Assembly: GCF_003555505.1 (NCBI RefSeq)
Contig: NZ_CP032152.1
Span: 682,001-746,000 of the forward strand
Direction: 5' to 3'
DNA: 64,000 nt
Origin: Thermosynechococcus sichuanensis E542
GTDB taxonomy: Bacteria > Cyanobacteriota > Cyanobacteriia > Thermosynechococcales > Thermosynechococcaceae
Positions 30,516-34,076 of the stretch are shown here, piece by piece (positions within the stretch are counted from its first letter, which is position 1; each line of letters starts with the position of its first letter). The notes under the pieces are model-generated. The model searched no databases. It was not told the origin of the DNA and saw nothing but the letters and a program-made list of their open reading frames with translations. A program made the translations under genes and the position numbers.

Positions 30516-31556
30516 CTAGGAATTGCTGACATTGGTGCTGTTTTCCTCAATCGGGGCGATCGTCAGCAGTTCCTTGAGGGGTTTTTCACTATCGGAGATG
30601 GGAGGTTTGGCGGTTGTCAGTTCTGTATCAATGGCAAAGGTGGCAAACTGGGTGAGGATTTCGCGGCAGAAGACCTCTGCTGCCCGCGATCGGTAGCGAT
30701 TGGGATTGGTAATCAGTGACAGGGTGCGTTTCACCACCACATTTTCGATGCCCATCCGCCGTAGGCTCCCCAGTTGTAACTCCTTCTCAATGGCGGAAAT
30801 GGAGACAAAGGCAGCCCCCAAGCCCGACTGTACGGCGTTTTTAATCGCCTCGATGGAATTTAGCTCCATCTCTACCTTAAGGCGGCGGGGGTCAATGTTG
30901 GCACGCTGCAGCACCTGATCAATCACCTTGCGAATGGTGGATTGGGCATCAAGGGCAATAAAGCCCAACTTGTACAAGTCTTCTTTGGTCAGGGTTTCAG
31001 CACTCGCCAAGGGATGATCCACCGGTAAAATGAGTGCCAGTTCATCCTCAGCATAGGGGGTGACGGTAATTTGCTCACTCAGTTCCGAGGGGACTTCGCC
31101 GCCAATAATTGCCAGATCAATTTGGCCGTTGACCAAGCTCCAGCAGGTGCGGCGGGTGGAATGCACATGCAGTTGCACAGCTACTTCGGGATACTTGCTG
31201 CGAAATAGCCCAATCATACGGGGCATCAGATAGGTACCAGTGGTTTGGCTGGCTCCAATGATCAGGGTGCCCCCTTGCAATTTTTGCAGGTCTTCGATGG
31301 CACGGCAGGCTTCATGACACAGGGAGAGAATTTGATCGCCGTAGGCCAGTAGGAGTTGTCCGGCTTCAGTGAGTTGGGCGCGGCGTCCCCCACGATCAAA
31401 TAGGGGAACATCCAGTTGGCGCTCTAGGTTTTGCACCTGTAAACTCACGGCGGGTTGGGAGACGTAGAGGCTGTCAGCGGCTCGCTTAAAGCTTCCTTCG
31501 AGGGCGATCGCCTTCAGGATTCGCAATTGATCAAGGGAAAAGGGCAGTTCGGACAT
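30516..31556 (-). CDS. rbcR: LysR-type regulator of Rubisco operon
   Basis: LysR-type transcription factor that in cyanobacteria and red-lineage plastids (ycf30) controls rbcLS and carbon fixation genes. From [18 protein letters not shown] the protein is 346 residues. Several earlier in-frame ATGs (to 31682) exist but precede the conserved start. The HTH spans about 5-65 ([28 protein letters not shown]), followed by the effector domain with [60 protein letters not shown] and [15 protein letters not shown], very like Synechocystis RbcR. A disordered tail of about 40 residues is unusual. A perfect HLR1 motif lies upstream. Confidence 0.93.
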
Positions 31557-31693
31557 AGGCATTGAGGCCATAGGCATGCCACTAAGAGGCGTTTTTCTGA
31601 ACTTATCAGGAATCATGCCCAATTGATATCTATCCCTGCACAAGAAAGCTAACTCTGGTGTGCCCGTGACGCAAAATAGCACGTCTCAAACCT

Positions 31694-31699
31694 ATTGTA
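31694..31699 (-). promoter_or_regulatory. Candidate -10 box for rbcR
   Basis: TACAAT on the minus strand, 138 bp before the chosen rbcR start; no good -35 is seen at 17 bp, as is common for activator-dependent promoters. The HLR1 repeats begin 35 bp further upstream. Confidence 0.4.
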
Positions 31700-31734: not shown

Positions 31735-31752
31735 GTTACATATTGTTACATT
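31735..31752 (+). promoter_or_regulatory. HLR1 motif (RpaB-type binding site)
   Basis: GTTACATA-TT-GTTACATT: two 8-bp direct repeats 2 bp apart, matching the HLR1 consensus (G/T)TTACA(T/A)(T/A)-N2-repeat at every position. It lies in the 342-bp divergent region between rbcR and the CHASE2 kinase. The rest of 31557-31898 holds promoter sequence and no gene that I can support. Confidence 0.75.
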
Positions 31753-31898
31753 ATTGCGCTGGGGAGCGAGCGATCGCCTTCTTGATATCCCGTTGCTTAT
31801 TCTCTAGCAACAGAGGAAAGAGAAGATTGTGGTTCGCTAAAATCGGTCTAGCGATGTTCTCGGGGAGCCGCTGCCCAATTGCGCGAGGAGTTGAAATC

Positions 31899-34072
31899 GT
31901 GCCCTACCCTTGGCCAAAATGGCTGCCGATGCCGCTTGTTGCCACCACACTGGGAGTCGCTGCTGTGGTCATCGGTGTGCGCCAACTGGGACTGCTTCAG
32001 TCATCGGAACTGAGTCTGTACGACTTCTATGTGCGATCGCAACCCGCCCGTGACCCTGATTCGCGTATCCTGACGGTGCTGGTGACGGAGCAGGACATTC
32101 AAGCCCAAAAAACGTGGCCACTGCCGGATGCTACCGTCGCCGATCTCCTCACCCGCCTCAATGCCGCTAGCCCGCGTGCCATTGGCTTGGATATCTTTCG
32201 TGATTTGCCTCAGCCCCCCGGCCACGACGAGCTGCAAAACATGATTCGCATCAACCCGCGCATTATTCCAGTGTGCAAATCAACGGGCGAAACAGCGGAA
32301 CAACCTGAGGTGCCGCCGCCACCGAGTATTCCCTTAGCGCAAGTGCCAGATCGTGTCGGGTTTGCCGATATTCCCCTCGATAACGATGGTGTCATTCGCC
32401 GCAATCTGTTTGTGATCAGCAATCCCAAGGCGCAGCGGTGTACAACGCCCTTTTCCTTTGCCCTAATGCTGGCACTGCGCTACCTCGATCAGGAGCCAAC
32501 TCAGACCATCAAACTCGATGACAAGGGTTTGACGCTGAATGATGTGCATTTTCCCCTCCTCACCAGTGATGCCGGTGGCTATGTGGGGGTGGATGATCGC
32601 GGCATGCAAACCCTGCTGAAGTACCGCTCCCGCACCGCGGTGGGGCCAACGGTTTCCCTAACGGATGTCTTGACGGGGCGGGTGAGCGAAGACCTGATTC
32701 GCGATCGCGTGGTTTTGATTGGTGTGTCTGCCCCGAGTATCAAGGATATTTTCCTCACCCCCTATAGCGGTAGTGATGCCGTGACGCAGCAAATGCCGGG
32801 GGTGGTTGTCCATGGCCAGATGGTGAGTCAATTTCTGAGTGCTGCCCTCGACGGGGAAAGTCCCATTTGGTACTGGCCGCTGCCGGTGGTGCTTGGCTGG
32901 ATTCTCCTGTGGGCCGGGGTGGGCAGTGTCCTTGGCTGGTGGTTGCGGCAACCCCTGTGGTTGGGGGGCGCAGTCGTGGGGGGGCTAATCATTCTCTTCG
33001 GGGGTGGCTTTGGCATTTTTGTCATGGGAAGTGGTTGGATTCCCGTGGTGCCGCCGGCGATCGCTCTGGTGCTCAGCAGTGTGGGTATGGTCGGCTACGT
33101 CAGCTATCAGGCACAGCAGGAGCAAAAATCTTTCCAAGAAAAAGTGCAGGAACAGGAAAAAGCCTTGGCGCTGTTGCGATCGCTCATGGCCGAGGATACA
33201 GCCGCCCTCAATGCCGCGCTGCGGGAACCCACAGAAATTACCGGCAAACCCCGTTCCCTTCTCAGTGGCCGCTACAAAATCCAAAAAGTCTTGGGGTCAG
33301 GGGGCTTTGGCCGCACCTATTTGGCTCAGGATACCCAACGCCCGGGAAACCCCCTTTGTGTTGTCAAGCATTTGCGACCGGGACGCACTGATGAGCGCTT
33401 TATGCAGGTGGCGCGGCGACTCTTTAATACCGAAGCAGAAATCCTTGAAAAGCTAGGACGCCACGATCAAATTCCCCTCTTGCTGGCCTATGTTGAGGAA
33501 AATCAGGAATTCTATCTGGTGCAGGAGTTCATTGATGGCGCTTCTCTCAGTGAGGAACTGAAACGCAAACACACGGAAGCCGAAGCCATCCAACTCCTAC
33601 GGGAAATCTTGGAAGTACTGAGTTTTGTCCACAGTCACTATGTGATTCACCGCGATATTAAGCCCGATAATATTATTCGCCGTGCTAGCGATCGCAAGCT
33701 AGTACTGATTGACTTTGGGGCAGTGAAGCAAATGCAACCCCAAGAAGTCGCGAAAACCCAAGGGAGCACTGTGGTCATTGGTACGATGGGTTATGCTCCG
33801 CCAGAACAGCTCTCCGGTCAGCCCACCCTCAGCAGTGATATTTACGCCGTGGGCATGATTGTCCTTCAGGCTTTAACGGGCATTAAACCCCGCGATCTAC
33901 CGCGAGATCCGCGCACGGGTGAAGTGGATTGGCAGCAGTGTGTCACAGTGAGTGAGGGTCTAGCGGCAGTACTCAATAAAATGGTGAAGTTTAACTTTAG
34001 CGATCGCTATCCCTCGGCCAAGGAAGCCCTTCAAGATGTGCGGCGCTTGGCACCACCTGCTTCACCCGTCTC

Positions 34073-34076
<4 letters not shown>
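31899..34076 (+). CDS. CHASE2-domain serine/threonine protein kinase
   Basis: Transmembrane receptor kinase of 725 residues. The start is GTG 31899, with AGGAG at 8 nt (31886-31890); longer frames to 31704 add a stretch unlike the family and run over the promoter. TM1 is at about 8-28. A CHASE2 sensor follows (about 30-325: SELSLYDFYVRSQPARDPDSRIL, GLDIFRDLP, VGFADIPLDNDGVIRRNL). Three TM segments lie at about 328-420, then a short coiled coil. The kinase domain starts near 455: G-loop GSGGFGRTYLA at about 464, VVKHL, HRDIKPDN at about 584, DFGAVKQ at about 604 and APPEQ. All catalytic residues are present. The end overlaps feoA by 4 nt. Confidence 0.92.

What the first reader, a model, noticed from the sequence alone, without database searches (positions are those of the whole stretch)
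31735..31752. Perfect HLR1 (RpaB-type) motif between rbcR and a CHASE2 kinase
GTTACATA-TT-GTTACATT matches the high-light regulatory 1 consensus in both 8-bp repeats and in the 2-bp spacing. HLR1 is bound by RpaB, which controls photosystem I and light-stress genes. Here it lies about 35-53 bp upstream of a TACAAT -10 (31699-31694) for rbcR, near -56 from the likely transcription start, a position used by activated photosystem I genes. This would tie the Rubisco regulator, or the divergent membrane kinase, to light/redox control.
Basis: partly seen in the sequence, partly recalled or inferred. Interest (0 to 1): 0.6.

Follow-up and report, generated by a model that had tools for sequence, protein, structure and literature searches.

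The report
RpaB-type light switch upstream of rbcR
In heat-loving cyanobacteria (Thermosynechococcus), the gene for the presumed Rubisco regulator RbcR carries a perfect copy of the DNA site used by the light/redox regulator RpaB, which would place carbon fixation under light control; this is a sequence-based prediction not yet tested at the bench.

Summary
GTTACATA-TT-GTTACATT at 31735-31752 is a perfect HLR1 consensus, the only one in the window (0 of 100 shuffles) and one of four in the genome.

It is unlikely to be chance. In 11 Thermosynechococcus genomes the consensus occurs 37 times, against 2 for the reversed pattern and 1 with the repeats half a DNA turn further apart. The rbcR site is perfect in 5 of 11. 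Its 12-base core is intact in a sixth, changed at one or two bases in three, and too degenerate to call in two.

It fits rbcR better than the divergent CHASE2 kinase. The gap to the rbcR -10 box is 35 bp in 9 of 9 genomes; that to a candidate kinase -10 varies from 85 to 163 bp. Where the kinase lies elsewhere, no HLR1 precedes it.

RpaB is encoded, and the inferred position (-65 to -48) falls in a published activating range. Most likely RpaB activates rbcR in low light.

It is lineage-specific: 117 rbcR upstream regions outside the genus show no excess. The start site is inferred, the motif faces away from rbcR, and binding is untested. A new member of a known kind.

The parts
31735..31752 (+). 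HLR1 element GTTACATA-TT-GTTACATT (two direct repeats, 10-bp period); predicted RpaB site
   Evidence: Exact match; 37 perfect sites vs 2 reversed-pattern controls in 11 genus genomes, 1 with a 7-bp spacer; conserved core
31694..31699 (-). rbcR -10 box TACAAT, with no good -35
   Evidence: TACAAT in 9 of 11 genus genomes, TAGAAT/TCGAAT in the other two; 35 bp from HLR1 in 9 of 9
31687..31687 (-). inferred rbcR transcription start (about +/-2 nt)
   Evidence: inference: 7th base after the -10 box; puts HLR1 at -65..-48
30516..31556 (-). rbcR, LysR-type regulator (start MSELPF assumed; upstream in-frame starts exist)
   Evidence: Pfam HTH_1 and LysR_substrate; close homologue in 28 of 29 order and 141 of 145 class genomes. 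The name RbcR is from the finding and recall, not from a call
31838..31843 (+). candidate -10 box TAAAAT of the divergent kinase
   Evidence: read from the sequence; 85-163 bp from HLR1 in 9 genomes; no independent support
31899..34076 (+). CHASE2 Ser/Thr protein kinase gene, divergent from rbcR (GTG start assumed)
   Evidence: Pfam CHASE2 and Pkinase; adjacent to rbcR in 9 of 11 genus genomes

Best explanation
The 18 bp are a genuine HLR1 site for the OmpR-family regulator RpaB, acting on rbcR. Inferred mechanism: in low light or oxidised conditions phosphorylated RpaB binds the two tandem half-sites just upstream of a promoter that has a good -10 but a poor -35, and helps RNA polymerase start rbcR. 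In high light or reduced conditions RpaB is dephosphorylated or released and rbcR falls to a basal level. This makes a two-step path NblS-RpaB, then RbcR, then Rubisco and CO2-concentrating genes, specific to the Thermosynechococcus lineage. Shown here: the motif, its statistical excess, its conservation with rbcR, and the presence of RpaB. Inferred: binding, start site, sign of control, downstream effect. NblS was not searched for.
For: Perfect consensus once in the window, 0 of 100 shuffles. Genus-wide 37 perfect sites vs 2 reversed controls and 1 with a 7-bp spacer; outside the genus 260 vs 46 in 91 genomes. In nine genomes the 12-base core is 96% conserved and the 4 bases between 72%; 5 of 186 same-shaped windows upstream of the inferred start do as well, three being registers of the motif and two the -10 region. 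Gap to the rbcR -10 is 35 bp in 9 of 9, with a poor -35 in all nine (2-3 of 6). Three half-sites in G002 and G007, four in G010. RpaB encoded: NF045944, 398.5 bits against a cut-off of 330. Other sites in this genome lie upstream of a CpcS-type lyase gene (perfect), a chlorophyll-binding antenna gene and psbD (one mismatch), psbA and psaC (two mismatches). Activating range -66 to -45 (PMC13421787, passages).
Against: No measured start site, no binding or expression data. The nine genomes are close relatives (RbcR 98-100% identical), so shared descent explains part of the conservation. The motif is on the strand opposite rbcR; of 4 psaD upstream sites scoring 14 or more, 3 are on the gene's strand and 1 opposite. 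Outside the genus 117 upstream regions score like the reversed control, none above 14 of 16. G001, G008 and G009 score no better than their own reversed controls (14 vs 14, 14 vs 14, 13 vs 13), and G006 has two core changes. psaD, a reported RpaB target, has no site of 14 or more within 300 bp in the five genus members examined, so the local regulon may differ. A paralogous OmpR-type regulator could read the site.
Confidence: 0.6

Rival explanations
1. The HLR1 site is real and RpaB-bound but serves the divergent CHASE2 kinase (motif read forward towards it), or both genes.
For: The motif is on the kinase's coding strand; the kinase is adjacent in 9 of 11 genus genomes. It would lie at about -115 to -98 of the start inferred from the TAAAAT box, at the edge of the looser activating range of about 50-100 nt given in PMC11633204 (passages).
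Against: Distance to the candidate kinase -10 is 85, 127, 128 (three genomes), 147 (two), 156 and 163 bp, while the rbcR gap is fixed. In G001, G008, G028 and G026 the kinase lies elsewhere and no site scores above 12 of 16 in its 450 bp upstream. Outside the -66 to -45 range of PMC13421787.
Confidence: 0.12
2. The site represses rbcR in low light (or acts from an unmapped start), so high light induces rbcR.
For: RpaB represses when its site overlaps the start (PMC13421787, passages). The rbcR start is only inferred, and a strongly conserved block lies further downstream in the 5' region.
Against: The -10 box at fixed distance in 9 of 9 genomes puts the site at -65..-48.
Confidence: 0.1
3. Another factor reads the repeats: RpaA or another OmpR paralogue, a CRP-type regulator (NtcA, SyCRP1), or RbcR itself.
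For: Two further proteins match the RpaB model over nearly its whole length at 218 and 196 bits, and weaker ones follow. RbcR is reported to activate its own gene (PMC13249358, passages). In G006 the best RbcR-like match (2 mismatches) overlaps the repeats, and in G010 a SyCRP1-like match (2 mismatches) lies on the extra half-sites.
Against: GTAN8TAC is absent in 12 of 12 upstream regions; ATTAR-N5-YTAAT is at best 3 mismatches away in this genome and 2 in any of the 12; the SyCRP1 consensus (recalled) is 4 away here. Direct 10-bp repeats fit OmpR-type tandem binding, not a dyad.
Confidence: 0.1
4. Chance resemblance with no function.
For: At up to 2 mismatches the genome shows little excess, 74 vs 63; no conservation beyond the genus.
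Against: Perfect sites are 37 vs 2 in the genus, so about 5% of perfect sites are expected by chance, and this one is conserved in core rather than spacer.
Confidence: 0.08

Closest known systems
HLR1 elements of RpaB-activated photosystem I genes (Synechocystis 6803, S. elongatus 7942)
   Same: Same 18-bp consensus and the same position range upstream of the start (PMC13421787, passages)
   Different: Target is a presumed carbon-metabolism transcription factor; motif on the opposite strand; start site not mapped
atpT promoter HLR1-like element of Synechocystis 6803
   Same: AT-rich HLR1-like element between -45 and -60, bound by RpaB in gel shifts (PMC9241938, passages)
   Different: That one is described as similar to HLR1 and was tested; ours is a perfect match and untested
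Repressing HLR1 sites of scp and other high-light genes
   Same: Same repeats, listed on either strand (PMC6331805, passages)
   Different: Those lie within the core promoter near the start; this one is inferred to lie upstream of it

Membership tests
[quoted passage not shown]
HLR1 element | 2-bp spacer (10-bp period) | tested here: met
   a 7-bp spacer gives 1 genus-wide match vs 37
HLR1 element | RpaB encoded in the same genome | tested here: met
   NF045944 398.5 bits, cut-off 330
HLR1 element | position -66..-45 (activating) or -38..+23 (repressing) of the start | tested here: inconclusive
   -65..-48 from an inferred start, in 9 of 9 genomes
HLR1 element | orientation as in activated promoters | tested here: inconclusive
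   opposite to rbcR; of 47 psaD upstream regions 4 hold a site of 14 or more, 3 on the gene's strand and 1 opposite
HLR1 element | RpaB binding and light-dependent expression | not testable with these tools
   needs gel shift and expression data
RbcR (LysR-type) | HTH_1 plus LysR substrate domain | tested here: met
RbcR (LysR-type) | near-universal close homologue in cyanobacteria | tested here: met
   141 of 145 class genomes at E <= 1e-60, one match each; 28 of 29 order genomes, two of them with a second match
RbcR (LysR-type) | curated family model naming it | tested here: not met
   no NCBIfam match over its cut-off among the 25 shown of 48; such a model may not exist
RbcR (LysR-type) | own box ATTAR-N5-YTAAT in its promoter (autoregulation) | tested here: not met
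   best 3 mismatches in the 330 bp before the gene; reported for Synechocystis (PMC13249358), so it may differ here
RbcR (LysR-type) | controls rbcLXS | not testable with these tools
   needs a mutant

The most novel reading that the evidence does not exclude
Thermosynechococcus has rewired its light/redox response so that RpaB sits directly above RbcR. Photosynthetic redox state would then set Rubisco and CO2-concentrating gene expression through a two-step cascade. The number of tandem half-sites (two to four between species) would tune its strength.
Probability: 0.4. Interest if true: 0.58.

Novelty: new member of a known kind. Interest (0 to 1): 0.42.

Why it matters
[quoted passage not shown] A direct RpaB site on rbcR would give a simple, testable wire between photosynthetic redox state and the Rubisco regulator, in a transformable thermophile whose photosystems are structural models (the last point is recalled). 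It is one lineage's promoter, not a general cyanobacterial rule.

Tried and rejected
Rejected: the kinase as main target; NtcA, SyCRP1 and RbcR boxes as the better reading of this site; general conservation of an HLR1 upstream of rbcR in cyanobacteria (117 regions); counting at 2 mismatches, which has little power (74 vs 63).

Led nowhere: psaD as an orientation yardstick, with 4 of 47 usable upstream regions holding a site of 14 or more (3 of 50 loci dropped because the start was not found). No Thermosynechococcus RpaB study or start-site map stood out among the 12 papers listed or the 20 of 226 listed (listings only). The papers on the RpaB regulon (Riediger 2019), RbcR (Bolay 2022) and psaAB (Takahashi 2010) are not held, so I could not check whether rbcR is already listed as an RpaB target. 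The main text of Piechura 2017 (PMC5785211) has no occurrence of rbcR; its source data were not open to me. Searches for RpaB, HLR1 and rbcR gave 1 paper, for HLR1 and RbcR 3 papers, and a wider one 11; of these I saw passages of PMC13421787, PMC6778093, PMC11979508 and PMC11288746 and the rest as listings.

Dropped or unread rows: L021 was left out of the alignment because its start motif did not match. Of the 141 class genomes with an rbcR match, 98 upstream regions from outside the family were examined (18 returned as loci, 80 fetched), plus 19 from the family; some are distant homologues. The printout was cut. In this genome all 18 sites with at most one mismatch were read for neighbours, and 53 of the 56 two-mismatch sites (two overlap other sites, one at 2635157 was not fetched), with no neighbours shown for sites inside genes. 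In the genus, neighbours were read for 30 of the 37 perfect sites; one more (G007) was assigned to rbcR by coordinates.

Full report
Observation. The window carries GTTACATATTGTTACATT at 31735-31752 on the + strand, between a LysR-type regulator on the - strand (30516-31556) and a CHASE2 serine/threonine kinase on the + strand (about 31899-34076); domains. It fits the published HLR1 consensus KTTACAWW-N2-KTTACAWW at every position (PMC13421787, passages). It is the only perfect match in 64 kb, with none in 100 shuffles. The 2.65-Mb genome belongs with Thermosynechococcus: G004 of its genus has rbcR on a 9407-bp contig, the same length as the rbcR-bearing contig of a record named Thermosynechococcus sp. 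M98_K2018_005.

Is it more than chance? In this genome four perfect sites exist and none of the reversed pattern; at one mismatch 18 vs 9, at two 74 vs 63. In 11 genus genomes perfect sites number 37 vs 2 reversed, and moving the repeats to a 7-bp spacer leaves 1. In 91 sampled genomes of the class outside the genus the figures are 260 vs 46. By the reversed control about one perfect site in twenty would be chance in the genus, and nearly one in five in the wider class. Many genus sites are orthologous, so they are not independent.

What else carries it here? I read neighbours of all 18 sites with at most one mismatch and of 53 of 56 two-mismatch sites. Photosynthetic genes among them: a CpcS-type lyase (perfect; Pfam CpeS), a chlorophyll-binding antenna protein (one mismatch; NCBIfam TIGR03041 over its cut-off), psbD (one mismatch, 399 bp before the start), psbA and psaC (two mismatches). 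Pfam gives the reaction-centre family for psbA and psbD and ferredoxin-type domains for psaC, so these three names rest on my reading of the sequences. No rbcL was among the genes displayed, so a direct site on the Rubisco operon was not seen by this criterion. In the genus, among the sites read, the CpcS/DUF2605 region keeps a perfect site in 9 genomes, a cellulose-synthase-like gene in 4 and the NnrU gene in 3.

Whose site is it? The rbcR copy is perfect in 5 of 11 genomes (G000, G002, G004, G007, G010). The 12-base core is intact in a sixth (G003), changed at one base in G005 and G009 and at two in G006. G001 and G008 keep related 10-bp-spaced repeats, but these score no better than the reversed control (14 vs 14), and G009 also ties (13 vs 13). 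In the nine genomes where both genes are divergent the gap from motif to rbcR -10 box is 35 bp in all nine; the gap to the candidate kinase -10 runs from 85 to 163 bp. Where the kinase is elsewhere (G001, G008, G028, G026) no site above 12 of 16 precedes it within 450 bp. In the nine-genome alignment the core is 96% conserved and the four bases between 72%. Five of 186 same-shaped windows upstream of the inferred start do as well, three of them registers of the motif itself and two on the -10 region; counting the 5' untranslated region it is 47 of 314, so that region is conserved too. These nine are close relatives (RbcR 98-100% identical). G002 and G007 have a third half-site and G010 a third and fourth.

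Mechanism. RpaB is present; NblS was not searched for. With the start placed 7 bp after the -10, the motif lies at -65 to -48. The review gives -66 to -45 for activation and -38 to +23 for repression (PMC13421787); another paper gives about 50-100 nt for activation (PMC11633204). The -35 hexamer is poor in all nine (2-3 of 6), as expected of an activator-dependent promoter. The most likely mode is activation of rbcR by phosphorylated RpaB in low light, relaxed in high light. In Synechocystis RbcR activates rbcLXS, ccm, sbtA and ndhF3 genes (PMC13249358, passages), so the cascade would couple photosynthetic redox state to carbon fixation. Two reports point to other light or redox links of RbcR: its target genes change with thioredoxin A level in Synechocystis (PMC11288746, passages), and rbcR and nblS are both enriched targets of the sRNA Yfr2 in Prochlorococcus (PMC6778093, passages).

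Weak points. The motif is on the strand opposite rbcR. HLR1 sites near start sites are listed on both strands (PMC6331805, passages); for activation I found only thin evidence, 3 of 4 psaD sites on the gene's strand. psaD in the five genus members examined has no site of 14 or more, so the Thermosynechococcus regulon cannot simply be copied from Synechocystis. Outside the genus 117 rbcR upstream regions are no better than the control (best score 14: 6 vs 5; 13: 20 vs 20; none higher). The gene name RbcR rests on the finding and recall; the nearest solved relative is named Rubisco operon transcriptional regulator, 5y2v, at 129 bits.

Novelty. I found no statement linking HLR1 or RpaB to rbcR in what I saw (searches; passages), but the principal regulon papers were not available. 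As a kind of thing it is a known promoter element on a new target.

Noticed in passing
window 31598-31610 (- strand), rbcR 5' region: A block CCTGATAAGTTCA shortly before the rbcR start is identical in 11 of 11 genus genomes and in sister genus G028. In ten of these twelve it forms CTGA-N5-TCAG. Whether it is an operator, an RNA element or translated was not tested.
   Followed up: partly
L138 (genome C1:669400-669417) and orthologues: A perfect HLR1 between a CpcS-type lyase gene and a DUF2605 gene is kept in 9 genus genomes read, more than any other site read.
   Followed up: partly
L143 (genome C1:548765-548782) and orthologues: HLR1 sites (perfect in 4 other genomes read, one mismatch here) precede a cellulose-synthase-like gene, suggesting light/redox control of cellulose production.
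   Followed up: no
L014 (G010), rbcR upstream region: Four GTTACATW half-sites at 10, 13 and 9 bp spacings, as if the half-site had been multiplied.
   Followed up: no
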